From: Silvibacterium acidisoli
GTDB lineage: Bacteria; Acidobacteriota; Terriglobia; Terriglobales; Acidobacteriaceae
Length of the DNA: 64,000 nt
Direction of reading: 5' to 3'
NCBI GenBank assembly: GCA_022870745.1
Contig: CP085323.1
Coordinates: forward strand, 3,968,001 to 4,032,000
Part shown: positions 1-12,084 of the stretch, piece after piece
How positions within the stretch are numbered: position 1 is the first letter of the stretch
How the letters are laid out: each line of letters opens with the position of its first letter
Translations under genes and position numbers: made by a program
The notes under the pieces: generated by a model
Told to the model about the DNA's origin: nothing
Database searches by the model: none
The model's input: only the letters and a program-made list of their open reading frames with translations

Positions 1-1579
1 CGTATTCCTGAGAGAGACGCAGCATTGCAGCCGGAGAGGTGGTCAGCATCGAGTAGAGCTTGCCGGCCGGCAAATCATAACGTGAGGTTGCGTATGCAGC
101 TTCATCCAGCAGGTCTCCGCAGGCTGTCAGCGGAGAGTCGCTTCCGATGGCGGCGAGCTCGAAACCATTTACCAGTTGTGGCAGAGGTATTGCGCCGAAC
201 AGGAACTGGTTGGAGCTGGGACAGAATACAAGCGCCACGCCTGAGCTCTGTAAGGTTGCGATGTCATCGTGACCGACAGCTAAGCCGTGAACGAGAATCG
301 TTCCGCTGCGCATCAATCCAAGGTGATGTAGATCCCGCAATTCCGCTGCGGCCGATGCACTAAGCCCTTCGCAGGCGTGGAGAATAAACGGAATGTCGGA
401 CTGAACGCTCTCCTGGGCCCTGAGGCCTTCGGGATCGAATGCTGGGGAATGAATCCAACGCATCCTGTCGACCACACGAACGGGGAAGCTGGGATCGAGC
501 ATTCCGGGCGAGATGGGATTGTGGTGACATACCGTCGTCACTCCGCAGAGAAGATTTCTTACTGCTCCCCAGCGCACGCGCACATCGTGTGGAACCATCC
601 GGTGAAGAGCAATCTCGTCGGCGTAACGTGAGTGAATGTCATTCGCCCACTCCCTTGTGTCTTGGTACGGTCCCTCGCCGAGTTGCCGGAAAAGGCTGAA
701 ATCAAGGTGATCGTGAGCGTTGATCAGCCCAGGCAGCAACATGTATCCATCAAGCGAGAGCTCTCGAGCTTCAGCTTTGTTGTCCTGTTGAAGGAAGCTG
801 ATCTTTTCCCCGTTGATCCCAAGCGTGGCCTGCAATCCAAGATCGCTTGTGATCGCGCAACGCGCTCCAGAGATGCTGTACTCCGCAGCCAGAGGGTCGT
901 GCGTGAGCTGAAGCAGGTAAAGCGCAGGATCATTCTTGATCTTTTCGAAGGCGTCGATTCGTCCGGCATCATTGAATAGGAAGCGCTCAGCTTCAGAAAA
1001 TGGAACTTCCAAGTCGGTCCGAAGATGAAGAGCTTGTTGTTGCAATAAGGTGCGGATGTTCGAGAGGCATCGATGGTTCCATTGAATCGATACCTCTTCA
1101 CCCTCTGTATGGAACGAGCGCTTCCATGCGAACTTATCTGCCGTGCCTGGATGCATGTCTACAAGGAACATCTGCCCTTCGGGCCGCAGTAACCGCTTCA
1201 TCTCGCAGCAGAAAGCGTGAAGGTCCTGCACGTAACTCAGAACGAAGGAGCAGACGATAACATCCACGCTCCGATCGGCCAGTGGAACCGTCGTGCAGTC
1301 TGAGCGGTGCAGCTTGCTATGTTGCGGAAGGCGCAGGCGAGCGAGTTCCAGCATCTGCTCCGAGTAATCGACACCGTGCAGAGAGGAAGCGCCTTTACGC
1401 ATGAAAAGATCAAAGTGCCTGCCGGTGCCGCAACCTGCATCCAGGATGGTCTTTCCATCCAGCGATGGCAATAGGGCGTCCAGCAGTCGAGCTTCGAGCG
1501 TGCAGAATGGATTGCTTGCGTCGTTGTAAACAGCGGCCCAGCGATTGAAAACATCCGGTGTTGGAGACGCGGAAATCAC
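1..1579 (-). CDS. SAM methyltransferase-amidohydrolase fusion protein (3' end outside window)
   Basis: One uninterrupted minus-strand frame encodes two enzymes. Residues 1-145 are a class I SAM-dependent methyltransferase: the SAM-binding loop DAGCGTG is at 47-53, followed by a GVDYSEQML segment. Residues from about 225 onward are an amidohydrolase of the ATZ/TRZ (cytosine deaminase-like) superfamily: PGLINAHDHLD carries the metal-binding HxH (H289, H291), with later ligands likely H401 (HACEG), H431 (VHG) and D481 (GSDSP). I read every codon between the two domains and found no stop, so the fusion is real unless there is a sequencing error. The start is a GTG that overlaps the TGA of the preceding radical SAM gene (GTGA), which implies translational coupling. 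The C-terminus lies left of base 1; 526 residues are visible. Substrate unknown. By context it acts last in the radical SAM operon, probably as a methylating and deaminating or hydrolysing step. No ATG-started frame of this length reveals it. Confidence 0.85.
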   Translation of the reverse strand, partial: MISASPTPDVFNRWAAVYNDASNPFCTLEARLLDALLPSLDGKTILDAGCGTGRHFDLFMRKGASSLHGVDYSEQMLELARLRLPQHSKLHRSDCTTVPLADRSVDVIVCSFVLSYVQDLHAFCCEMKRLLRPEGQMFLVDMHPGTADKFAWKRSFHTEGEEVSIQWNHRCLSNIRTLLQQQALHLRTDLEVPFSEAERFLFNDAGRIDAFEKIKNDPALYLLQLTHDPLAAEYSISGARCAITSDLGLQATLGINGEKISFLQQDNKAEARELSLDGYMLLPGLINAHDHLDFSLFRQLGEGPYQDTREWANDIHSRYADEIALHRMVPHDVRVRWGAVRNLLCGVTTVCHHNPISPGMLDPSFPVRVVDRMRWIHSPAFDPEGLRAQESVQSDIPFILHACEGLSASAAAELRDLHHLGLMRSGTILVHGLAVGHDDIATLQSSGVALVFCPSSNQFLFGAIPLPQLVNGFELAAIGSDSPLTACGDLLDEAAYATSRYDLPAGKLYSMLTTSPAAMLRLSQEY

Positions 1580-3039
1580 AGGCTTTCCCGCTTCGGTTTG
1601 CGTAGGTCTATGAAGCGTTGAGCCCACACAAGTTCGTATGGCGCGCTGTATACACCGGTCGCATAACGCCACGCGCTCAGGGTTTGCAGCAAGTATCTTC
1701 CCCAGCGCGGCGCGCGAATGTCCTGCACGGTAGGCCAGCGTGAGGCTACCACTGTCTCGAAATTGTCGATCAGGCGTTTGGTCTCGCGCTTCATCCATGG
1801 AGCCCTTGTGTCCACGCGTAAAGTGAAGTCCATCCACTCTTTGCTGGCCCACTCTGCGGGGCTGGAGGGGAAGCTGACTTTGTCGTCCACATCGCCGTAC
1901 ATCGCGCCTCTCTGTGGGGTCGGCGTGTAGTGTTGAATGATGATCTCGGCGTCAGGGTTGATGCGTTTGATCTTGCGGACAAATGCGAGCGTTTCGCGGG
2001 TATCGCGTTCAGGGTCCTTTGGATTTCCGACAACGAAAGAGAACTCGGGGATGATGCCCACCTCGCGCGTGCGGCGCGCCATGATGAGAGTTTCTTCCGT
2101 GGTGATACCCTTTTGCATTTCCTGTAGAGCCCAGTCTGAGCCTGACTCCGCGCCGAAGAAAATCATGGCACAGCCGCCACGCTTGATGGCGCGCATGGTG
2201 TCATCGCTGTACCTGGACATGATGTCCACCCTCGCCTCGCACCACCAGCGAAGATTCAGTCCCGCAATACGATTCATCAGTTCGACAGCGTGATCCTCAC
2301 GCAGGAAGAAGTTCATGTCGTAGAACTGGACGGAGTCAGCGCCGTACTTTTCCACCAGATGAGTGAGGATCGCTTCGGTGCGGGCCGGAGACTCAAACTT
2401 TTCCGTCCTTCCGTAAGCAGCGTGCACTCCGCAGAAGCTGCAGTTAAAAGGGCAGCCGATGCTGGCGTGATGTACCGCGGTGCGTTTGCCAAAGAACGAA
2501 GGGCGCAGGTATTTCTCGACGGGCAGACGATGAAACGGCATCCATGGGAAGCTGTCCGGGCCTTTCATGGGGCGCTCCGCGTTACTGCGATGCATGCCGA
2601 ATTTGTCCTTGTACGAGAGGCCCAGTATCGTGTCAGGCGTTCGTAGTCCGCGTATTGCTTCGATCAGCTCGAGCAGCGTTTCTTCGCCCTGCCCTCGCAC
2701 AGCATAGTCAACATATCTCGCGTTGAGCGTGGCTTCTGGATAGATGGAAGGGAAGTAGCCTCCCCATGCGATAGGGATCTGGGGACGTAGCTTTCTGATC
2801 TCGCGGCAGACTTCCATCCCCGCGGCCATCTGGGGTCCGGGCATGACGGAGACGCCCAGCAGTTCCACATGATGGGTGTCGATGAGGTGAAGCAGCGTCG
2901 AGAGTGGATCGTCGTCGACGTTGCCATCGACGATCTCGTACTCCTCGCGTCCCTCAAGCACGGCCGCAAGCGCCATCACCGCCAATGGAAGGCGGCGGCT
3001 ACGCGGCTTCACGGCGCGTGGGTGGAAGAGCAGGATCAA
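1576..3039 (-). CDS. B12-binding-domain radical SAM protein (fifth in operon)
   Basis: 487 residues. The N-terminal ~130 residues look like a cobalamin-binding Rossmann domain (ILLFHPRAV start, GVSVMPGP, WGGYFPSIYPE, VRGQGEETLLEL). A radical SAM TIM barrel with the [4Fe-4S] motif C196-x3-C200-x2-C203 (GCPFNCSFC) follows. The GAESGSD segment is typical of BchE/HpnJ-like members. The start is TTG, sharing bases with the TGA of the upstream methyltransferase gene (TTGA overlap). The next in-frame Met is 22 residues in and would cut the first beta strand, so TTG is preferred. Known reactions of this superfamily are radical methylation, cyclisation or C-C bond formation in lipids and secondary metabolites; the substrate here is unknown. 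It resembles the two proteins at 6745-8307 and 8301-9842 more than the pair at 3842-6729. Confidence 0.9.
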   Translation of the reverse strand: MILLFHPRAVKPRSRRLPLAVMALAAVLEGREEYEIVDGNVDDDPLSTLLHLIDTHHVELLGVSVMPGPQMAAGMEVCREIRKLRPQIPIAWGGYFPSIYPEATLNARYVDYAVRGQGEETLLELIEAIRGLRTPDTILGLSYKDKFGMHRSNAERPMKGPDSFPWMPFHRLPVEKYLRPSFFGKRTAVHHASIGCPFNCSFCGVHAAYGRTEKFESPARTEAILTHLVEKYGADSVQFYDMNFFLREDHAVELMNRIAGLNLRWWCEARVDIMSRYSDDTMRAIKRGGCAMIFFGAESGSDWALQEMQKGITTEETLIMARRTREVGIIPEFSFVVGNPKDPERDTRETLAFVRKIKRINPDAEIIIQHYTPTPQRGAMYGDVDDKVSFPSSPAEWASKEWMDFTLRVDTRAPWMKRETKRLIDNFETVVASRWPTVQDIRAPRWGRYLLQTLSAWRYATGVYSAPYELVWAQRFIDLRKPKRESL

Positions 3040-3845
3040 GGTTGTGCCCCTTCCGTCTTTTCAAAGTGGAGCAGCATGTGATCACCCAGTGTTCTCAATA
3101 AGGGGAGCCGCGAAAAAAAACTGTCCAGTCCAATCATCATGCGAAGCAGCCATGGGTGGTTTGCAATCCACGATTCAACATAAGACGGCGGCACGAAGAG
3201 ACCGATCGCTCGAACTTCCCGCAGCGTAAAAAATGGCGCGAAGATAGTTTGTAACTGAGAAAGCGACCAATAGAACACGTCGACAGAATTGCCTTGAAGC
3301 GAAGTACGATGCCGCCCAGGCCAGCGCCGAAAAGCCTTGGCTGGCTTCCCGTGCAGCAGGTACCAGGCGGTCTCCCAAATGCAGACGCGTGTGGAGAGGC
3401 AGAAGACCAGTGGCGTACCGATGGTCGTTCTGCTGGCCAGCAGTGCAGCGATCGCAGTGAGATTCTCGACGCAATTGAGCCCTGAGAAGTTCGAGAAGAC
3501 TCCGTCAAAAGTCTCCTCGATTCTGCTCAGGTCTTCGGTGCGCATCTGCTGGAAGCGGAGGTCTGCCAGCGGCGCTTCGCGAAGCTTGCGGAACCGTGCT
3601 CTAGCGATCATCTGCTGCGACGCGTCGAGCGCGAGAACACGCCAACCTCTGCCGGACAGTTGAAGAGCGTCCTCTCCTGTGCCGCAGTTGAGTTCCAGAA
3701 TTCTTGGCCGCCCTTTGAATATCCGAAAAGCGTCAGTAAGTACGGCGGATCGCTGGGCCCGGCCTATGAGAGTGTTCGTAAAGTCGCTGTCGTATGTCTT
3801 TGCAAGCGTGTCGAAGGCCTGCCCTGCTGAAGTGGTCGCGATCAT
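3036..3845 (-). CDS. class I SAM-dependent methyltransferase
   Basis: 269 residues. The SAM-binding glycine loop ELNCGTGED is at about residues 50-58, preceded by an ILELNC strand and followed by an acidic ALDASQQM motif II, as in UbiE/Methyltransf_11/25 enzymes. The C-terminal ~100 residues are hydrophobic and aromatic and may form the acceptor pocket. Its ATG overlaps the stop of the upstream radical SAM gene (ATGA), and its stop overlaps the TTG of the next one, so it is an integral operon member. It probably methylates O, N or an activated C of the same pathway intermediate; the acceptor is not predictable from sequence. Confidence 0.88.
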   Translation of the reverse strand: MIATTSAGQAFDTLAKTYDSDFTNTLIGRAQRSAVLTDAFRIFKGRPRILELNCGTGEDALQLSGRGWRVLALDASQQMIARARFRKLREAPLADLRFQQMRTEDLSRIEETFDGVFSNFSGLNCVENLTAIAALLASRTTIGTPLVFCLSTRVCIWETAWYLLHGKPAKAFRRWPGRHRTSLQGNSVDVFYWSLSQLQTIFAPFFTLREVRAIGLFVPPSYVESWIANHPWLLRMMIGLDSFFSRLPLLRTLGDHMLLHFEKTEGAQP

Positions 3846-5239
3846 GCTTCAACCTCGCTGGCGCTCTCAAGGAGGTTGAATCTTGCAAGACGTACTTCTT
3901 CCGTAAGCTTCTGAATCTCGCTCCCGTCCTGATTTACTTCTCCACGCAGTTTGGCCAGGCGAACTTCACTGCGCAACAACTTGTCTGCAAAGCTGTAGTA
4001 ACGACGCGAATGGCGGCCTCGGATGATAATCTCCCGGTCGGAGCTCTTATCCCATGGTGCCAGCTGTACCAGGTCTTCCTTTACTTTCTGATAGTAGGGC
4101 GTCCCCTTGATGGGATAAGAAACCGTTGTGAAGAAGATGTCGGGCTGCGTGAGGCTGACATGCTTTACGGTCGCTTCAATATCTTCGAGCTCTTCGCCGT
4201 CATAGCCCCACATCAGAAACATTCCGCTCTCGATTCCACGGGAGCGGGTGAGTTCGACAGCGTTCTGCACCTGATCGAGCTTCACGCCCCTCTGCATGGA
4301 GTCGAGTATTCGCTGTGAGCCGCTTTCCGATCCAATCCAGACGCGAAAACAACCCAACTCGGCAAGCAGATCCATCGCTTCACTATTCAGGCGATCGGCG
4401 CGGGAGATGCATTCGAAGGGAATGCGCAACCCGCGGCGCTTCATCTCCGAGGCATAAGTCCTGAGCCACGAATGATTGATCGTGAATACGTCATCCGAAA
4501 CCCAGACCATGTCCGGCTGATATTCACCGAGAAGCCATTCCACCTCATCGACCACGCTTACCGGATCGCGCCGCCGATGTGTGTTGCCATAGACCTGGTG
4601 ACTGCACCATTGACAACGGTAAGGGCATCCACGTGCGGTAATGAAGTTGACTGAGCCTTTGCCGTGGTATTTGCGCCAGGTATCGACATACTGATGAATA
4701 TTCACAGCCTTGCGAGCAGGCCACGGCTGCTCATCGAGGCTTGCGATCTGTGCGCGTTGTGCTGTCTGCCGCAGTTGCCCGTTTTCGAGGTACGCGATCC
4801 CCGCAATCTGATCAATCTTTTCGAGAGCGCCGGCCTTGATGGCCGTCATCAATTCTTCAAGCGTCAGTTCACCTTCGCCCATCACGACAAACTGTGCACC
4901 CGCATCAAGATATTCTTTGGCGTACGCACCAGGTTCCGGGCCCCCGACAATGGTTTTCCAACCGGCGGCGCGGGCGATGCCCAGAAGTTCGACAACATTC
5001 GCGCGCGTCATGAGATTGGCATAAATGCCGAGCGTGGAAGGAGGCCCCGACTGTAGCCGGTCGACTAATGCAGCACGCGAGGAGAAAGTCGTATCGAAAA
5101 CCTCGACATCGAAGCCTTTTGCCTGGAGATGAGAACAAAGATACAGAATGCCCAATGGCGCGTAAGGCTTCATGATCTGCATCTCTTTGGGGTCTTCGTA
5201 TAAGAAGTAGCCATGCGTCAGCAGGAGATCGGGAGTCAT
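3842..5239 (-). CDS. B12-binding-domain radical SAM protein (third in operon)
   Basis: 465 residues. The N-terminal cobalamin-binding-like domain (about 1-140) contains LLLTHGYFLYED, PYAPLGILYL and VVMGEGELTLEEL. The radical SAM core carries C205-x3-C209-x2-C212 (GCPYRCQWC), then VSDDVF and WIGSESGSQ. The C-terminal ~50 residues are charged and probably helical. The N-terminus (LTHxYxL...KxMxPYAPLG) closely matches the neighbour at 5236-6729, so the two are paralogs, probably acting on related substrates or at consecutive steps. ATG start overlapping the TGA of the upstream gene by 4 nt; stop overlapping the next ATG. Confidence 0.9.
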   Translation of the reverse strand: MTPDLLLTHGYFLYEDPKEMQIMKPYAPLGILYLCSHLQAKGFDVEVFDTTFSSRAALVDRLQSGPPSTLGIYANLMTRANVVELLGIARAAGWKTIVGGPEPGAYAKEYLDAGAQFVVMGEGELTLEELMTAIKAGALEKIDQIAGIAYLENGQLRQTAQRAQIASLDEQPWPARKAVNIHQYVDTWRKYHGKGSVNFITARGCPYRCQWCSHQVYGNTHRRRDPVSVVDEVEWLLGEYQPDMVWVSDDVFTINHSWLRTYASEMKRRGLRIPFECISRADRLNSEAMDLLAELGCFRVWIGSESGSQRILDSMQRGVKLDQVQNAVELTRSRGIESGMFLMWGYDGEELEDIEATVKHVSLTQPDIFFTTVSYPIKGTPYYQKVKEDLVQLAPWDKSSDREIIIRGRHSRRYYSFADKLLRSEVRLAKLRGEVNQDGSEIQKLTEEVRLARFNLLESASEVEA

Positions 5240-6729
5240 GCCACACCTCCTTTCGCCGTCAGCATCTGCAGCGGAACAAAATGTTCATTTCGTGCCTGAC
5301 GCTGTAGCAAATTGCCGGATTGAGCGGGATGCCGTCTCTCTGCAGGCTCCATCGCGACGATTGCCGCCCAGAGGGCTGCAACCGCATGTTCATTGGCTAC
5401 ACCGTGTCCCCAGCCGCGAACCTCTTCGTGAAGCGCATCGCGAATCATGCGGTAGAGCTTGTCGGAATATTCTCCAGGAAAGATGACGCAGAGGTCGTCG
5501 CTATCCTGCCAGTTGCGCTTTGCGGCGAGCTCTGCCTGGATGCGTTCATAGAACAATGTGCCGGGCAGTGGATAGGAAATGCTTACGCCGATATCGTTAG
5601 GGCGAGCTTTTCGAACCAGCTCGACGGTTTCCATCAGCTCGCTCCATCCCTCACCGGGGTAGCCCAACTGCAGGAAGAAGCATGCCTTGATTCCGCGCTG
5701 CTGGAGACGTTTGGTCGATGTAAGCACGTCGCTTACCCGTAGATGCTTGTCCATGGCATCCAGCACCTTCTGTGAGCCGGACTCCACTCCCATCCATACT
5801 TCGACACATCCGCTCTTGGCGAGCAGGGCAGCGACCTCATCGGTAATAAGGTCTGCGCGTGCTTGAATCTTGTAAGGGATGCTCGCCCGATGCGCCTCTA
5901 CGTCATGTGCGAAGTCACGCAGCCAGCGGCGATTCAAAGCAAAGATATCGTCGCTGAACCATACATGCTGGACGCCATAAACTTCCTTCAGCTCCTTCAG
6001 TTCCAGAGCTACATCCTGTGCAGGCCGTACCTGATAGCGGTTTCCGGAGATCGGCTTGGCGCACCAATTGCAGGAGTAAGGGCAACCGCGGCTGGCCACG
6101 ACGTTGGCGGAAAAATGGCCATGAGCGTTTGTCCACGCCTGCCTATATGGCGCCATGTCGATAAGTCGTCGTGCCGGGCGGGGCATGGCTGACCACTCGC
6201 CGTTTCTGACCCTGCTGGAACCGCTTCGGCAGATCTCGTTGCTGGCGGGATCGCGCCATATCAGTCCAGGAGTTGCCCGTGGATCGCGGCCAGCCATGAG
6301 GTGCCCGCAAAGCTCGACCAGGACTTCTTCTGCCTCGCCCGTCAGGATGTAGTCCACACCACCTTGAAGGTATTCGGCGGCGAAGTCCGTTTCATCGGAT
6401 CCATGGGCGACGACGATCGCTCCAACCAGCTTGGCAAGCTTCGCGATCTCTTGCGCTGTTTGGCGCATTGACAGCAGGCACATCTTTGAAAGGAAGTTGA
6501 AGTCGTCCTCATAAATGACGACGATGTTAGGCTTCGTTTCCTTGAGGACTGGACCGAGATGATCGATGGGGTTAAGCAGCGTGCTGTCGAACACACGCAG
6601 TGTGATCCCTGCTTGTTCGAGCGCAGTTGCCGCGTACAGGGTTCCCAGCGGCGCATAGGGCTGCATCTTCCTGAGTTGCTTCTGATCGTTCCCCAGGTGG
6701 TACGAATGTGTGAGAAGGACATCAGTCAT
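5236..6729 (-). CDS. B12-binding-domain radical SAM protein (second paralog of the 3842 gene)
   Basis: 497 residues. The cobalamin-binding-like N-terminal domain starts VLLTHSYHLGND and contains PYAPLGTLYA and LTGEAEEVLVEL. The radical SAM core has C216-x3-C220-x2-C223 (GCPYSCNWC), then WFSDDIFALN and WMGVESGSQK. It differs from its paralog at 3842-5239 by a longer segment between B12 domain and barrel and a different C-terminal tail. The ATG lies 15 nt after the stop of the upstream gene; this is the only non-overlapping junction among the operon genes. Function beyond radical SAM chemistry is not known. Confidence 0.9.
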   Translation of the reverse strand: MTDVLLTHSYHLGNDQKQLRKMQPYAPLGTLYAATALEQAGITLRVFDSTLLNPIDHLGPVLKETKPNIVVIYEDDFNFLSKMCLLSMRQTAQEIAKLAKLVGAIVVAHGSDETDFAAEYLQGGVDYILTGEAEEVLVELCGHLMAGRDPRATPGLIWRDPASNEICRSGSSRVRNGEWSAMPRPARRLIDMAPYRQAWTNAHGHFSANVVASRGCPYSCNWCAKPISGNRYQVRPAQDVALELKELKEVYGVQHVWFSDDIFALNRRWLRDFAHDVEAHRASIPYKIQARADLITDEVAALLAKSGCVEVWMGVESGSQKVLDAMDKHLRVSDVLTSTKRLQQRGIKACFFLQLGYPGEGWSELMETVELVRKARPNDIGVSISYPLPGTLFYERIQAELAAKRNWQDSDDLCVIFPGEYSDKLYRMIRDALHEEVRGWGHGVANEHAVAALWAAIVAMEPAERRHPAQSGNLLQRQARNEHFVPLQMLTAKGGVA

Positions 6730-6744
6730 GGTGGAGACTCCGCG

Positions 6745-8307
6745 CTAGCATGCAGCCGCCTGCTCAGGAAGATCCTGGCCTGTAACAAGTGACCGGCGAG
6801 AAGCAAGTGGGCCCGACAACTTCGATACCCAAAGCTCCCAGGGAAAGCCATAGTGACTGGAACGAACACGCCAGCGCACGGGATGTTTTACCAGCATGCG
6901 TACGCCGGCGTTTTTGAACGATTCGCGATCATGCCTGCGATGGACCTTTCCATTCAGCAGGAAGTAATCGAGCATTCTCTTGAGGCGTTCCAGCTCTTCT
7001 CCATGAAGCCAAGGGAGGGCGTTTGCGCTCAGTGGCAGCTGGATCCATTCCTCGAGCGTCTGAGGTTCGCGTACGCCTAACTCGCGTAGCTGCGGCCAGA
7101 TGGGAATTCCCGGATACGGTGTAAACAGGTTCGGTGAAAATTGCACATTGTCGTAGCGCTGAACAATGTCGCTCATGGTCTGGAAGGTCTCAATGCGATC
7201 GTCTTCTGTCTCGCCCGGATATCCGAGGATGAGATTGAAGTTGATATGGATGCCGGCGATATGTGCCTTGCGGGCTGTCTCGTAAATGTCATCTACACGC
7301 TGATGTCGCTTGTTCATCAGGCGAAGAACGCGTGCCGAGGTGGATTCCGTGCCAAAGCCCATTACCTTCACGCCACTCTGGCCCAGCAGGTTCACTTCGT
7401 CCTGTGTCATGCGGCAAAGAAAGTCGGTGGATGCCTGGAAAGTCCATTGGAACTTTACGCCGGAATCGAGAATGCCGCGTGCGATGGCCAGGGCCCTCTT
7501 CACATCGACGGGAAAGTTTGAGTCGAGCAGTGCAACTTCATCGATACGGTGGCGACGAACCAGGTCAACCAGTTCATCCACGACACGGCTCGCATCGTAA
7601 GCGTTGAAGCGCCGGCGATAGACGACCATGTCTGTGCAGTAATTGCATGCGTATGGGCAGCCTACGCTCGTGGCGTATGCCAGCTTGCGGTGTCCATTGA
7701 GCGGCTCGTATGCGTCAAAGTCTGCGAGTTCATATGCAGGTGGAGCGAAGCTGCCGATTGGCGCTACAGTGCGGTCGGGATTCGCCTGTACCTCGTTGCC
7801 CTGCTTCCAATGGATGCCCGCGATCGATGCGACGGAGTGGTCCGCAGAGAAGGCCTGCGCCAGTTCCAGCATCGTAATTTCACCCTGTCCACGCACCACG
7901 ATGTCGACATAAGGTTCGCGGACGGTTTGAACCGGTTCGAGGGAAGGATGCCATCCACCGAAGATGACCGGAAGCTCAGGCCGGTTCGACCGGACGGCCT
8001 TCGCGGCAGCAATCGCGCCACGGATCATGGGACCTGTCAGGACGGAGATGCCGAGGCACAACGCCTCAGAACTCTCACGCACCACGCGGGCGAGAAAATC
8101 CGTGTGGATGCTGGCATCAATCAGCACGACCCTGAAGCCGGCATCACGGAGAACCCCAGCCAGTGCCAGTAGTGAAAGTGGAGCGCCGAGGGGCGGACCA
8201 TCGTACGGCGGATAAAACAGCACGACTTTGTCGCGGCCCGGCAATGGCCGTCCAACCGGAGCGCCGGATGCGCTGCGAATCGCCCCAACCGGCAGCACAT
8301 TCAGCAT
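6745..8307 (-). CDS. B12-binding-domain radical SAM protein (second gene of operon)
   Basis: 520 residues from the ATG at 8307. The frame stays open for another 104 codons upstream, but that stretch lies inside the neighbouring gene and has no family similarity, so the internal ATG, overlapping the TGA of the upstream gene by 7 nt, is taken. The B12-binding-like domain starts near KVVLFYPPYDG (27-37) and has VIFGGWHPSLEP and VVRGQGEITMLEL. The radical SAM motif C217-x3-C221-x2-C224 is GCPYACNYC; then DSNFPVD and GFGTESTSAR, and a C-terminal extension with FTPYPGIPIWPQL. Strongly similar throughout to the protein at 8301-9842 (both have TGPMIR, GGWHPSL, FTPYPG, LEEW), so a recent duplication. 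The shared C-terminal half resembles BchE/HpnJ-like enzymes that work on hydrophobic substrates. Confidence 0.9.
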   Translation of the reverse strand: MLNVLPVGAIRSASGAPVGRPLPGRDKVVLFYPPYDGPPLGAPLSLLALAGVLRDAGFRVVLIDASIHTDFLARVVRESSEALCLGISVLTGPMIRGAIAAAKAVRSNRPELPVIFGGWHPSLEPVQTVREPYVDIVVRGQGEITMLELAQAFSADHSVASIAGIHWKQGNEVQANPDRTVAPIGSFAPPAYELADFDAYEPLNGHRKLAYATSVGCPYACNYCTDMVVYRRRFNAYDASRVVDELVDLVRRHRIDEVALLDSNFPVDVKRALAIARGILDSGVKFQWTFQASTDFLCRMTQDEVNLLGQSGVKVMGFGTESTSARVLRLMNKRHQRVDDIYETARKAHIAGIHINFNLILGYPGETEDDRIETFQTMSDIVQRYDNVQFSPNLFTPYPGIPIWPQLRELGVREPQTLEEWIQLPLSANALPWLHGEELERLKRMLDYFLLNGKVHRRHDRESFKNAGVRMLVKHPVRWRVRSSHYGFPWELWVSKLSGPLASRRSLVTGQDLPEQAAAC

Positions 8308-9842
8308 GCAGCAGCCTCTTCCGGTGTTCTCGCCAGGCGCTTTGCATCGACCGCCGGCTTGCTCTTCGGAATCCTCTTTTTCAACTTGTTGTTCAACCAG
8401 ATGTCGACAGGGAATTGGTAGATGTCGTGATCGAGCCGCCAACGCGCGGGCAGAGATATTGCCTTCTGTGCGAGCCGAATGATCGGAGTACGCGTGTCGG
8501 CCGCAATCGGAATACGATCGAAAGCAAGCCGCAGATATTCGCGTGTGTTCTGAAGGCGTTGATGGCTCTTTCCCTTGAGCCACGGAAGTTCGGTGTAACG
8601 TGGGAAGAAGTCGGCCCACTCTTCGAGGGTCTGTGGCGGCTCGATGCCGATCTCGGCGGTGTGTGCGAATATGGGTGAGCCGGGATATGGGGTGAAGATA
8701 TTCGTCCAGAACTCCGCGCCGGGAAAACGGCGGCAGACGTCGAGCATGAACGTGATGGTTTCCCGCCGCTCCTTCGGGCCTTCACCGGGAAACGCGAAGA
8801 TGATGTTGAAGGATGGGCGAATGCCTGCTTCAAGGCAACGAGCGGCGCTTTCGTAAATCGACTCGAAGTCCTGAAAGTCCTTGTTCATCGCCTTCAGGAT
8901 GGTTGGCGAACCGGAATCGACTCCCTGGCAAACCTGTCGAAGCCCGGCACGCCGCAAGAGCTTCATGTCTTCCAGCGATAAGCGCGAGACGAGGTTGGTC
9001 GTCGCCTGGATACTCCAGGTATAGTGCGAGTTTTCGCGCACGAGGCCTTCGGCGATACCCCTGGCGCGGTCGAGATCGACTAGGAAATTGTCATCGACAA
9101 CCCAGATCATCTCAAGTGCGTAACGCCTGCTGAGGTCAACGGTCTCGGCCACGAATTGTTCAGGGGGAAGGGCATTCCATTTTCTGCCGTAGACGCCGCC
9201 ATTCGTGCAATAGGCGCAGTTGAACGGGCAGGCCAGGCTGGAGGTGTACATGGCCCAACGTCGCCCGCACGAACGCTCGTAAGCGTCGAAATCTGCAAGG
9301 TGGTAGGCCTTTGGAGGCATCTCCACGATGGGCCGAAGCGCGCGCTCGGGAGAGAAGACGATGCGTCCGTCGCGTTTGAAGCCAAGTCCCGCAATGAGGT
9401 CGGGCGCGGCGCCATTCGACAGATGCTGTACCAGCTGCAGCATCGTTTCCTCACCCTGCCCACGAACGACGTAGTCTACATATGGCGCTTCGAGAGTCTG
9501 TTGCGGCAACAACGATGGATGCCATCCGCCGAGAATGACAGGGAAGTCCGGCTTCCAGGCCTTCACCGCTTTTGCGATGGCAACGGTTTCGCGAATCATC
9601 GGCCCTGTCACCAGCGATACGGCAAGACAGAGGGCGTCCTTCACCTCTTCCAGCACGCGCTTCTGAAAGTCAGGGGTGATGGTGGAGTCGATTAGGCAGA
9701 TGGAATAGCCGGCGCGCTCCAGGGGAGTAGAAACGGCAAGAATCCCCAGCGGCGCAGTCGCTTCCGTACTCGCGAACGATGGGAAAAAGAAGACGATTTT
9801 TCGTGAGCTTCGCAGAACAGGCACCTCGATTGCATCGTTCAA
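8301..9842 (-). CDS. B12-binding-domain radical SAM protein (first gene of operon)
   Basis: 513 residues from the chosen TTG. The B12-binding-like domain starts at KIVFFFPSF and contains VILGGWHPSLLPQ and VVRGQGEETMLQL. The radical SAM motif C205-x3-C209-x2-C212 is ACPFNCAYC, so the usual Gly before the first Cys is Ala. VVDDNFLVD and VDSGSPTILK follow; the C-terminal half has FTPYPGSPIFA. The frame is open to 10058, with an ATG at 10007 that would overlap the start of the divergent gene. I prefer TTG 9842 because a good promoter (GTGACA, 17 bp, GATTAT at 9850-9878) places the transcript start at about that codon and the protein then matches its paralog in length. GTG at 9824 is another option. 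Confidence 0.85.
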   Translation of the reverse strand: MNDAIEVPVLRSSRKIVFFFPSFASTEATAPLGILAVSTPLERAGYSICLIDSTITPDFQKRVLEEVKDALCLAVSLVTGPMIRETVAIAKAVKAWKPDFPVILGGWHPSLLPQQTLEAPYVDYVVRGQGEETMLQLVQHLSNGAAPDLIAGLGFKRDGRIVFSPERALRPIVEMPPKAYHLADFDAYERSCGRRWAMYTSSLACPFNCAYCTNGGVYGRKWNALPPEQFVAETVDLSRRYALEMIWVVDDNFLVDLDRARGIAEGLVRENSHYTWSIQATTNLVSRLSLEDMKLLRRAGLRQVCQGVDSGSPTILKAMNKDFQDFESIYESAARCLEAGIRPSFNIIFAFPGEGPKERRETITFMLDVCRRFPGAEFWTNIFTPYPGSPIFAHTAEIGIEPPQTLEEWADFFPRYTELPWLKGKSHQRLQNTREYLRLAFDRIPIAADTRTPIIRLAQKAISLPARWRLDHDIYQFPVDIWLNNKLKKRIPKSKPAVDAKRLARTPEEAAAC

Positions 9843-9849
9843 TGCGAAG

Positions 9850-9878
9850 ATAATCAGCGCCAGGGGCAGAGATGTCAC
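9850..9878 (-). promoter_or_regulatory. predicted promoter of the radical SAM operon
   Basis: On the minus strand GTGACA (9878-9873) is separated by exactly 17 bp from GATTAT (9855-9850), a good sigma-70-type -35/-10 pair. Seven bases later comes TTG at 9842-9840, so transcription would begin at or next to the start codon. This would make the first gene leaderless and rules against the upstream ATG at 10007. Predicted by eye. Confidence 0.55.
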
Positions 9879-9967
9879 CCCAATGTCAGCGTTTTGTAAC
9901 TGTTTCCTGGGTGGGAAAGCGCCTGTGAGAAGGAGTTTTACAGCGATGACATTTCTGTGACGCGGCG

Positions 9968-9997
9968 GTGACGATTCTTCTGGCTGGAAGACATAAT
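9968..9997 (+). promoter_or_regulatory. predicted promoter of the GT87-like gene
   Basis: GTGACG (9968-9973), 18 bp, CATAAT (9992-9997), then 8 bp to the ATG at 10006. The short distance suggests a leaderless or nearly leaderless mRNA; there is no clear Shine-Dalgarno sequence. It faces away from the radical SAM operon promoter, so the ~130 bp between them is a divergent control region. Confidence 0.4.
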
Positions 9998-10005
9998 CTC
10001 GTTCC

Positions 10006-12084
10006 ATGCCTTCGCTGCCGATCTCTCGCATTGTGTGCTGGTTTGAGCGTGCAGCCATCTTATTGGCTGGGCTATTCCTGCTGTCGCATACGATGCCAAA
10101 GGCATGGCGAAACCTGGATACGGACTTCCCGAACTATTATCTGGCGGCGCGAATGGTGCATGAGGGGTATGACACATCGCGCATGTACGAATGGGCCTGG
10201 ATACAGAGAGAGAAGGACCATCGTGCGATCGATATTCGCGTGATCGGAATGCTCCCTATCACTCCGTTTTCGACGTTGGCAATGTACCCTTTGGCCCGGA
10301 TGGAGCCGCTGAAGGCAAAGCGTATCTTCATCCTTCTAAATCTTGCGTTTCTCGTTCCCCTTGCATGGATGCTGAGGTCGATGACTTCTCTCAGCTACCA
10401 GAAGATTTCGTTGATTATTCTCCTGAGCTTCCCGCTGCACCGCAATCTTCTGTACGGGCAGTTCTACATTCTGCTTTTGTTGCTTATCGTTGCCGGATGC
10501 TTCAGCTATCTCCGCGGCCATTCAGCAGTTGCGGGTTCGCTCATCGCGGTTGCCGCTTTGTGTAAAGTGTTTCCTGCGCTGCTGTTCGTGTTTTTTCTTC
10601 AGCGGAGAGACTGGCGTGCTCTTCTCTCCGGTGCAGTCACAGCGGTCGTGGCCTGCGCGGTCTCCATCGCGGCCTTTGGCTGGAGCGTTCATCGAACCTG
10701 GCTTCAGGAGATTTTTCCATGGGTAGCGCGCGGAGAAGGATTAGGCACTTACGCTACGAGCGATTCCATCTCCGGATTGCTTCATCGGCTCTTCCTCCCC
10801 GAGCCGCAGTGGAATCCCCATCCCTGGCATAACTCGCCACTTGCCTATGCCGTGCTGATGGCAACTGCACAGATGCTGGTGCTGGCGCCAGCGATTCTGC
10901 TGCTGCGGAGAGATAACTCAGATCAGAAGCGGACTCTTCTGATCTGGTCTGCGCTGTTGACCGCGGCCTTAGCCGTTTCGACGATTCCGGCGTCTTACAA
11001 CTTCGTTCTGATGATCTTTCCAGCGTGTGTAGCGGTCGCGGTGCTGCAGGAGAAAGGTAGGACCTGCCTCGCCGCGCTGTTGCTGCTCGTCTATGCGCTG
11101 ATCGGTCTGCCGATACCAGCTACGCACGCGGCGCTGCATGCTTCGCGTTTGCCATTGATGCTTATCGTGCTTCTGACCCTGTGCACGCTCTTGCGCCTGG
11201 AGGCAGAGCGTTCGAAGCCGGATTGGATGAACTACGCCTGGGGCGCATGCATGATCCTTGGCATCGCTTTTGCGATACCGATGACCTTGCGTCAACAAGT
11301 TGGAGAGAGGAAGGAGTTTCCGTATCGCGTTCCGACGCAGGCATCAGGCTTTCTCTACGCTAATCCTGCCGCAACAGAGGATGGAATTGAATTCTCTCTA
11401 TTCACCACGCAGGGTTACAAGCTGATCTCCGATCGCGAAACAATCCCTACACCCGAGGACAACGCTGCCTTCGACGATTTGTCCTTTACTTCGTTCCCTG
11501 GGCATACAATCGTCGAGCGTGCAGGAGGCAAAGGATCGAACCTGATCGATCCCCTGAGTCCCGGACAGGTTGTTGTAGCAAACGCGGAGGCTCCTGCAGT
11601 CTCAACCGATGGGAAGAACCTCGCCTTTCTTCGCTCTGAACATGGGCGTGGAGAACTGGTTTATCGGCGCTTGTTCCGGGGCAGTAACGACGAGGTTGTG
11701 TTAACGCCACCCAACCTGAATGTCTATGAGTTCTCATTCCTATCCATAGACAACTACGCATTTTCAGCCAGCGAGGGAGATGGTCCACCGCGAATCTATC
11801 TGTCGCAGGGCTCGCTTCGGAATCAAGCAATAGTTTTCAATGCTTCCAGGTATCCTGCGTTATCGCCCGATGCACGATTCCTCGCCTATAGCCGATTCGA
11901 ACATGGATCATGGAACTTATGGGTGCGGGACCAGCGTACGGGGCAGAGCCGCCGCATCGCCGACGTGCCATGCAATCAGATAGAGCCCTCGTGGGAGAAA
12001 GATTCGAAGACCATCCTCTACGGAACCGATTGTGGAAGAAGCATATGGTTCACCGCAGTTGCGCGACGCAGAGTTGTACCCTGA
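10006..12084 (+). CDS. GT87-like (DUF2029) membrane glycosyltransferase with C-terminal beta-propeller-like domain
   Basis: 692 residues. Residues 1 to about 430 are polytopic: a first membrane helix near the start, a periplasmic loop with DTDFPNYYLAARM resembling the acidic first loop of GT-C mannosyl/arabinosyl transferases (GT87 family), and about ten further hydrophobic helices. Residues about 440-692 are soluble and contain repeat units such as LSPDARFLAYSRF, SWNLWVRD, TGQSRRI and IEPSWEKDSKTILYG, which resemble TolB/PD40 propeller blades. The likely reaction is sugar transfer from a polyprenyl-phosphate donor on the outer face of the inner membrane, with the propeller in the periplasm binding the acceptor or a partner. 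Divergent from the radical SAM operon; whether it decorates that operon's product is unknown. Confidence 0.75.
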   Translation: MPSLPISRIVCWFERAAILLAGLFLLSHTMPKAWRNLDTDFPNYYLAARMVHEGYDTSRMYEWAWIQREKDHRAIDIRVIGMLPITPFSTLAMYPLARMEPLKAKRIFILLNLAFLVPLAWMLRSMTSLSYQKISLIILLSFPLHRNLLYGQFYILLLLLIVAGCFSYLRGHSAVAGSLIAVAALCKVFPALLFVFFLQRRDWRALLSGAVTAVVACAVSIAAFGWSVHRTWLQEIFPWVARGEGLGTYATSDSISGLLHRLFLPEPQWNPHPWHNSPLAYAVLMATAQMLVLAPAILLLRRDNSDQKRTLLIWSALLTAALAVSTIPASYNFVLMIFPACVAVAVLQEKGRTCLAALLLLVYALIGLPIPATHAALHASRLPLMLIVLLTLCTLLRLEAERSKPDWMNYAWGACMILGIAFAIPMTLRQQVGERKEFPYRVPTQASGFLYANPAATEDGIEFSLFTTQGYKLISDRETIPTPEDNAAFDDLSFTSFPGHTIVERAGGKGSNLIDPLSPGQVVVANAEAPAVSTDGKNLAFLRSEHGRGELVYRRLFRGSNDEVVLTPPNLNVYEFSFLSIDNYAFSASEGDGPPRIYLSQGSLRNQAIVFNASRYPALSPDARFLAYSRFEHGSWNLWVRDQRTGQSRRIADVPCNQIEPSWEKDSKTILYGTDCGRSIWFTAVARRRVVP

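What the first reader, a model, noticed from the sequence alone, without database searches (positions are those of the whole stretch)
1..9878. Translationally coupled operon of five B12-type radical SAM enzymes with two methyltransferase domains and an amidohydrolase
Five proteins with a cobalamin-binding-like N-terminus and CxxxCxxC are encoded back to back, with 4-7 nt overlaps at most junctions, and nothing else is in the operon except methyltransferase and amidohydrolase activities. They form two paralog pairs (3842/5236 and 6745/8301) plus a fifth, which suggests repeated, position-specific modification of one substrate. I know of no described pathway with this composition. The BchE/HpnJ-like members point to a hydrophobic substrate, perhaps a lipid or a natural product.
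Basis: partly seen in the sequence, partly recalled or inferred. Interest (0 to 1): 0.82.

Follow-up and report, generated by a model that had tools for sequence, protein, structure and literature searches.

The report
Conserved multi-radical-SAM operon, product unknown
An acidobacterium carries a tightly packed set of six radical enzymes, two methyltransferase domains and a deaminase-like enzyme that recurs as a unit in many bacteria, often beside genes for making surface sugars, and no description of what it makes was found.

Summary
The minus-strand operon A1-A2-B-C-MT2-D-(methyltransferase/amidohydrolase fusion) runs past the window's left edge to a sixth radical SAM gene of SPASM type. 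Five of six junctions inside the window overlap by 4-7 nt. All five window enzymes have CxxxCxxC; four pass Pfam's B12-binding cut-off. The set is no local accident: 27 of 33 distinct loci with at least seven components keep the order, and one genome keeps the complement split over two loci. Two modules, B+MT2 and D+methyltransferase+amidohydrolase, recur in Bacteroidota, Chloroflexota, Gemmatimonadota and Proteobacteria. About a third of 99 neighbouring ORFs tallied outside Acidobacteriota match glycosyltransferase, flippase or O-antigen ligase families, and the window's operon lies near Poly_export, Wzz, flippase, WecG and Wzy_C genes. This favours a sugar or lipid-linked sugar substrate over the hydrophobic one suggested; BchE and HpnJ scores are far below cut-off. 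A dedicated GTP cyclohydrolase II in smaller relatives of the cluster keeps a nucleobase-derived product open. The amidohydrolase may clear adenosyl by-products or act on an intermediate. No PqqD was found in the genome. No reaction is shown and no characterised pathway was matched.

The parts
8301..9824 (-). A1: B12-binding + radical SAM protein, first gene of the operon (start uncertain: GTG 9824, TTG 9842 or GTG 9878)
   Evidence: Pfam B12-binding and Radical_SAM; orthologues 58-92% identical; start candidates
6745..8307 (-). A2: B12-binding + radical SAM protein, paralogue of A1 (40%)
   Evidence: lies elsewhere in the genome in G060, G095, G179
5236..6729 (-). B: radical SAM protein with B12-type architecture; cross-phylum core of the system
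   Evidence: model matches TsrM, AprD4, MgmA best
3842..5239 (-). C: B12-binding + radical SAM protein, 32% to B, separate cross-phylum clade
3036..3845 (-). MT2: class I SAM methyltransferase, usual partner of B
   Evidence: Pfam Methyltransf_25; present in 67 of 80 B loci, same strand in 65
1576..3039 (-). D: B12-binding + radical SAM protein, distant HpnJ relative
   Evidence: one cross-phylum clade, SH-aLRT 100
1..1579 (-). E: methyltransferase fused to a COG0402-type amidohydrolase; cut by the window edge (stop at G000:3967690, 310 bases left of window base 1); followed outside the window by F, a SPASM radical SAM gene (G000:3966663-3967799)
   Evidence: start GTG 1579; HxH, HxxE, H and D invariant in 14 aligned relatives
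9825..10005 (.). divergent intergenic region between A1 and the GT87 gene, presumed promoter region
   Evidence: position only; no Rfam match at the gathering threshold in the window, so no cobalamin riboswitch called
10006..12084 (+). GT87-type glycosyltransferase with PD40 repeats, probable associated gene
   Evidence: Pfam GT87; GT87 relatives labelled in 7 of 13 minimal-type loci and in 8 of 40 extended rows

Best explanation
The operon is a conserved radical tailoring pathway working on a sugar- or cyclitol-type building block at an exopolysaccharide/O-antigen-type locus. Inferred mechanism: A1, A2, B, C, D and F cleave SAM to a 5'-deoxyadenosyl radical and each takes a hydrogen from a different carbon of one activated (nucleotide- or lipid-linked) substrate; the cobalamin enzymes then transfer a methyl group or drive a ring rearrangement or dehydration, as HpnJ does on hopanoid-linked glucosamine and AprD4 on paromamine. 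MT2 and the E methyltransferase add methyl groups to O or N. The amidohydrolase either deaminates adenosyl by-products (5'-deoxyadenosine, SAH) that would hold these enzymes up, or deaminates an intermediate. GT87 and the EPS glycosyltransferases, flippase and ligase assemble and export the product. Shown: the operon, its conservation as a unit and its glycan setting. Inferred: substrate, reactions and their order.
For: Order kept in 27 of 33 distinct loci with at least seven components besides MT3 (34 of 40 rows, 7 rows being second copies of a contig by equal length). Genome G287 holds the set split in two: A1-A2-C-MT2-D-E_MT and B-MT3-E_AH-F; A2 lies apart in three genomes looked at. Distance matrices of 21 gene pairs correlate at 0.65-0.92, 0 of 2000 permutations as high for each. 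Glycan setting: of 99 neighbour ORFs from 13 Bacteroidota, Chloroflexota and Ignavibacteria loci, 14 match Glycos_transf_1, 9 Glycos_transf_2, 6 Polysacc_synt, 5 Wzy_C; in the window's genome Wzy_C, Poly_export/SLBB, Wzz, a weak MatE match, GT4 and WecG lie in the 20 kb left of the window. B's best profile match among solved sequences is AprD4 (1.5e-28), solved with paromamine (title). HpnJ makes BHT cyclitol ether from BHT glucosamine (PMC12583986, passages). CobS is encoded. Amidohydrolase ligands invariant in 14 of 14.
Against: No enzyme reaches an NCBIfam cut-off of any family (45 for F), so homology gives no substrate. Neighbourhood is not function; no background rate of EPS genes was measured, and the 99 ORFs are a chosen part of 178. 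The minimal clusters carry a dedicated GTP cyclohydrolase II, which a pure sugar pathway does not explain. The operon is patchy: the one same-genus genome listed lacks E and A1. Distance correlations also arise from shared species history.
Confidence: 0.45

Rival explanations
1. A nucleobase-derived small molecule. GTP cyclohydrolase II (dedicated copy in the minimal clusters, housekeeping copy elsewhere) supplies a diaminopyrimidine that the amidohydrolase deaminates and the methyltransferases and radical enzymes decorate, followed by glycosylation; a logic like toxoflavin's (recalled).
For: RibA was labelled in 12 of 13 minimal-type loci, between MT2 and B where the order was read; in the thirteenth, G083, one search finds it with one stop codon in the match. 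6 of 7 minimal-type genomes searched have this copy besides others elsewhere. One extended cluster, L089, also has a RibA relative beyond GT87, upstream of A1. The amidohydrolase belongs to the class of purine, adenosyl and triazine deaminases/hydrolases. UGT in 13 of 13 minimal-type loci. PNP_UDP_1-type genes near B in seven Chloroflexota-type loci.
Against: The three extended-cluster genomes searched (G135, G155, G187) and the window's genome have only one stand-alone RibA and one longer protein, and the window genome's stand-alone copy has no other component within its 20 kb stretch. No RibA label in L112-L160, the loci that are mostly of other phyla.
Confidence: 0.17
2. A lipid pathway: radical enzymes cyclise, cross-link or methylate a membrane lipid, as ladderane, HpnJ, HpnR or tetraether enzymes do.
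For: Best NCBIfam relatives include HpnJ, BchE and TIGR04072 'lipid biosynthesis'. A type III polyketide synthase operon lies next door in the window's genome.
Against: All far below cut-off (at most 150.3 against 481 bits). No fatty-acid or isoprenoid enzyme was recognised in the recurring set. The polyketide synthase operon has no relatives in the 36 other loci. Many neighbours are glycan genes.
Confidence: 0.15
3. A ribosomal peptide (RiPP) tailored by several B12 radical SAM methylases, as in bottromycin or polytheonamide (recalled).
For: Several B12 radical SAM enzymes with methyltransferase and amidohydrolase recall bottromycin (recalled). F scores, below cut-off, with SPASM peptide maturases, and the linked HprK-like kinase with ScmC, HprK_rel_A and HprK_rel_B, also below cut-off.
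Against: PqqD: 0 matches in the window's genome; 10 of 17 genomes searched have PqqD somewhere, none at the cluster. ORFs under 110-120 aa were not examined, so a precursor was not looked for.
Confidence: 0.06
4. Sub-question: the amidohydrolase acts on a pathway intermediate and not on adenosyl by-products.
For: It is fused to a methyltransferase in the window's genome and relatives and travels with D and E_MT across phyla. Its middle, substrate-facing region is not covered by the alignments to solved deaminases. By single-sequence search the first functionally named solved relative is an 8-oxoguanine deaminase/atrazine-type hydrolase. The window's genome has other PNP_UDP_1 proteins, the class that includes MTA/SAH nucleosidase, so by-product removal need not depend on it.
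Against: By profile the fourth solved relative, and the first with a functional name, is an MTA/SAH deaminase (4f0r). Eight loci without the amidohydrolase carry a PNP_UDP_1-type gene; but seven are one kind of Chloroflexota cluster, the eighth (L118) is far off on the other strand, and the one scanned scores best with uridine phosphorylase, below cut-off.
Confidence: 0.45

Closest known systems
HpnJ (TIGR03471), bacteriohopanetetrol cyclitol ether formation
   Same: Same superfamily architecture; best NCBIfam match of D (96.8 bits); acts on a lipid-linked amino sugar
   Different: Far below the 577.6-bit cut-off; no hopanoid gene recognised in the recurring set
AprD4 (radical SAM diol dehydratase of apramycin biosynthesis)
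   Same: Best solved-sequence match of the B profile; TM-score 0.67/0.73 to the model of B
   Different: 21% identity; NCBIfam NF033070 95.5 against 500 bits
BchE (Mg-protoporphyrin ester cyclase)
   Same: Best NCBIfam match of C, A1 and A2
   Different: 150.3, 121.0 and 126.6 bits against a cut-off of 481.35
TIGR04072 (lipid biosynthesis, ladderane-type) and TIGR04295 (B12_rSAM_oligo)
   Same: B12/radical SAM families that score with these proteins
   Different: At most 114.6 of 360 and 103.5 of 400 bits
COG0402-type amidohydrolases (MTA/SAH deaminase, 8-oxoguanine deaminase, triazine hydrolases; the COG name is recalled)
   Same: HxH, HxxE, H, D ligand pattern; nearest solved relatives 4dyk, 4gbd, 4dzh, 4f0r
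   Different: Middle region not aligned; fused to a methyltransferase here
Bottromycin-type RiPP clusters (recalled)
   Same: Several B12 radical SAM methylases with an amidohydrolase and a methyltransferase
   Different: No PqqD in the genome; precursor not looked for; glycan setting

Membership tests
B12-binding radical SAM enzymes (superfamily) | CxxxCxxC in a Radical_SAM domain | tested here: met
   5 of 5 window proteins
B12-binding radical SAM enzymes (superfamily) | N-terminal B12-binding domain over the Pfam cut-off | tested here: inconclusive
   A1, A2, C, D over it; B below (20.5 of 32.1 bits), though its model matches B12 radical SAM structures over its length
HpnJ | NCBIfam equivalog cut-off 577.6 | tested here: not met
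   D 96.8, C 103.1, B 96.0, A1 92.2, A2 79.1
BchE | NCBIfam equivalog cut-off 481.35 | tested here: not met
   C 150.3, A2 126.6, A1 121.0, D 93.0, B 86.0
Ladderane-type TIGR04072 | cut-off 360 | tested here: not met
   at most 114.6, C
TIGR04295 B12_rSAM_oligo | cut-off 400 | tested here: not met
   at most 103.5, B
AprD4 diol dehydratase | NF033070 cut-off 500 | tested here: not met
   B 95.5
5'-deoxyadenosine / MTA / SAH deaminase | metal ligand pattern HxH, H, H, D of the amidohydrolase fold (pattern recalled) | tested here: met
   invariant in 14 of 14 aligned
5'-deoxyadenosine / MTA / SAH deaminase | NCBIfam equivalog cut-off (NF005557, 522) | tested here: not met
   33.7 bits, on the protein as truncated by the window
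RiPP with PqqD-type recognition | PqqD domain encoded at the cluster | tested here: not met
   0 in G000, none at the clusters of 16 relatives; recognition domains outside PF05402 not tested
RiPP | conserved precursor peptide gene | not tested
   ORFs under 110-120 aa were not screened
Exopolysaccharide locus | export, chain-length, flippase and glycosyltransferase genes nearby | tested here: met
   window genome left flank; tally of 99 neighbour ORFs elsewhere; no background control
Cobalamin-dependent methylase or ring-forming enzyme | enzymatic activity | not testable with these tools
   needs anaerobic enzymology

The most novel reading that the evidence does not exclude
A previously undescribed, cross-phylum surface-glycan pathway in which up to six radical enzymes act in sequence on one sugar or cyclitol, yielding a heavily C-modified (C-methylated, ring-contracted or deoxygenated) residue, with the pathway's own amidohydrolase clearing the adenosyl by-products; the acidobacterial operon is its most elaborate form seen here and B+MT2 the ancestral core.
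Probability: 0.3. Interest if true: 0.85.

Novelty: new variant of a known kind. Interest (0 to 1): 0.62.

Why it matters
Few B12-dependent radical SAM enzymes have a known substrate compared with the size of the superfamily (recalled). Five or six in fixed order, kept in dozens of genomes and recurring as two modules in several phyla, mark one pathway worth solving. Named, apparently cultured strains carry it: the extended cluster in Granulicella sp. dw_53, Edaphobacter modestus and E. lichenicola, the minimal one in Acidicapsa dinghuensis, and parts in Mucilaginibacter species and Rhodanobacter sp. B05. If the substrate is a surface sugar, it would be serial radical chemistry on a bacterial polysaccharide and would explain a recurring, unannotated part of EPS loci.

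Tried and rejected
Hopanoid or chlorophyll-type function from BchE/HpnJ resemblance: scores far below cut-off. RiPP: no PqqD in the genome, precursor not looked for. The neighbouring type III polyketide synthase, methyltransferase and FAD oxidoreductase: no relatives at 1e-8 in the 36 other loci (stretches of 20 kb or less), so set aside as a separate convergent operon. Plasmids: no match for B at 1e-40. Cobalamin riboswitch: no Rfam match in five sources. Dedicated RibA in the window's own pathway: the stand-alone copy has no other component in its 20 kb stretch, although L089 has one near its extended cluster. Paper searches without a relevant result; two searches gave background papers (passages of PMC12583986 and of PMC13142503; every other paper was seen only as a search listing). 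Solved-structure search with MT2 gave generic methyltransferases, with D much the same radical SAM set as with B. The stops that one search reports inside relatives come from its query starting 91 residues too early, in a frame that overlaps D.

Rows dropped and limits: one search left out L041, L081, L082, L091, L095, L097, L099, L102, L108 and L010 as copies or near copies. The tally used 99 of the 178 ORFs listed (13 of 16 loci; L118, L156 and L160 left out), chosen by position around B. One search counts only rows with seven or more components, out of 117 loci compared. The search for related loci kept the best 80 of at least 548 relatives.
Full report
What is there. The window is G000:C1:3968001-4032000 of a 5.36 Mb single-contig genome in the same family (f1) as Acidobacteriaceae bacterium KBS 89 (KBS 89 is taken to be G292 by equal contig length, 1,164,827 bases). 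On the minus strand, in the direction of transcription, lie A1 (8301-9824), A2 (6745-8307), B (5236-6729), C (3842-5239), MT2 (3036-3845), D (1576-3039) and a methyltransferase-amidohydrolase fusion E that begins at GTG 1579 and ends outside the window at G000:3967690. A sixth radical SAM gene, F, with a SPASM domain follows at G000:3966663-3967799. The five window radical SAM proteins carry CxxxCxxC. Four of them pass Pfam's B12-binding cut-off and B does not.

Conservation. A search with E in 299 genomes of the class matched at least part of it in 56, in 24 of 106 genera, the window's genome included; some of these match only one of the two domains. The one same-genus genome listed (G087) has no match, so the operon is accessory. 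A1 was found in 22 of 396 genomes of the phylum at 1e-80. In fetched loci the order A1-A2-B-C-MT2-(MT3)-D-E_MT-E_AH-F recurs: of 40 rows with at least seven components, 34 are in that order and 36 on one strand. Seven rows are second copies of a contig fetched twice, by equal contig length, which leaves 27 of 33 ordered, the window's own locus included. A third methyltransferase with a cysteine-rich N-terminus, MT3, is labelled in 30 of the 40 rows, between MT2 and D where read; the window's genome, L041 and L042 lack it there, and the window's genome has only weak matches elsewhere. In genome G287 the set is split between two loci that complement each other, and in G060, G095 and G179 A2 lies at another place without other components beside it. 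Keeping the complement after separation is stronger evidence for one pathway than order alone.

Spread beyond the phylum. A scan of 84,980 species genomes with the B alignment gave at least 548 relatives, of which the best 80 were kept. They include Bacteroidota (Mucilaginibacter, Niastella), Anaerolineales, Gemmatimonadetes, Ignavibacteria, Alphaproteobacteria and Rhodanobacter at 43-48% identity. MT2 is labelled in 67 of these 80 loci, in 65 on the same strand as B and in 66 within 3.5 kb; several of the other 13 are contig ends. D, E_MT and E_AH form a second module that recurs in those phyla. B, C and D are each one clade in a quick 90-row tree (SH-aLRT 97, 99 and 100), while A1 and A2 are sister groups except for two divergent rows, L139 and L149. 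Pairwise distances among seven components correlate at 0.65-0.92, with 0 of 2000 permutations as high for each of 21 pairs; shared species history contributes to this.

Minimal cluster. Thirteen acidobacterial loci carry a smaller set: MT2, B, MT3, E_AH and a UGT-type glycosyltransferase in 13 of 13, an HprK-like gene in 13, a GTP cyclohydrolase II labelled in 12 and a GT87 gene in 7. Six of seven such genomes searched hold this cyclohydrolase in addition to copies elsewhere, the seventh (G287) has none at its partial cluster, so it looks dedicated. One extended cluster, L089, also has a relative close by. This is not explained by a pure sugar pathway and is the best argument for a nucleobase-derived product.

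Setting. In 13 Bacteroidota, Chloroflexota and Ignavibacteria loci, 99 selected neighbour ORFs gave 14 matches to Glycos_transf_1, 9 to Glycos_transf_2, 6 to Polysacc_synt, 5 to Wzy_C and 4 to PNP_UDP_1. Left of the window the genome has Wzy_C, an HprK-like gene, NTP_transf_5, Poly_export/SLBB, Wzz, a weak MatE match, GT4 and WecG, then a type III polyketide synthase operon that converges on F. A nucleotidyltransferase-like gene is shared by 27 loci outside Acidobacteriota, just upstream of B in several read, and an HprK-like gene is labelled in 29 of 109 rows, copies included. No background rate was measured for these counts.

Function. The B model matches TsrM, AprD4, MgmA and OxsB best, and the B profile's best solved match is AprD4, solved with its substrate paromamine. 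D's best NCBIfam match is HpnJ, which forms the cyclitol ether from hopanoid-linked glucosamine (PMC12583986, passages). According to PMC13142503 (passages) the few known non-methylating cobalamin radical SAM enzymes all form or rearrange rings. Together with the glycan setting this makes a sugar or cyclitol substrate the most likely, but no profile reaches a cut-off and no reaction is shown. The amidohydrolase keeps the metal-ligand pattern. By profile the first solved relative with a functional name is an MTA/SAH deaminase, fourth in rank; by single sequence it is an 8-oxoguanine deaminase/atrazine-type hydrolase. It may therefore clear 5'-deoxyadenosine and SAH or act on an intermediate; its middle region does not align, and the genome has other PNP_UDP_1 proteins that might remove by-products. 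CobS is encoded, so cobalamin assembly or salvage is likely.

What is not known. The substrate, the reaction of any enzyme, and whether minimal and extended clusters make related products. Nine paper searches found no description of this gene set; the library is open-access only, so absence from print is not claimed.

Noticed in passing
L009:15005-18644 (G000:3963005-3966644), just left of the window: Type III polyketide synthase, methyltransferase, FAD-binding oxidoreductase and DUF2147 genes form an operon convergent with the finding; no relatives in the 36 other loci compared.
   Followed up: partly
L055:12862-13731 and similar genes in other minimal-type loci: An extra GTP cyclohydrolase II sits between MT2 and B in minimal clusters, in addition to other copies in the genome.
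   Followed up: partly
L126:9054-10004 and relatives in 26 other loci: A nucleotidyltransferase-like gene of about 316 aa, with no Pfam match or one just over the NTP_transf_2 cut-off, often precedes B outside Acidobacteriota.
   Followed up: partly
L009:3619-4623 and L009:6161-7477: HprK-like kinase and NTP_transf_5 genes near the operon; relatives of both lie beside clusters in other genomes, with no PqqD there in the genomes searched.
   Followed up: partly
window 1580-1852, inside D: The frame of E stays open for 91 codons upstream of its likely start, inside D, and relatives align there with stops: an overlap effect that misleads ORF callers.
   Followed up: yes
L126:12573-13340 and seven other loci: Nucleoside phosphorylase-like genes near B in loci without the amidohydrolase (in L118 far off on the other strand), perhaps a replacement for by-product removal.
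   Followed up: partly
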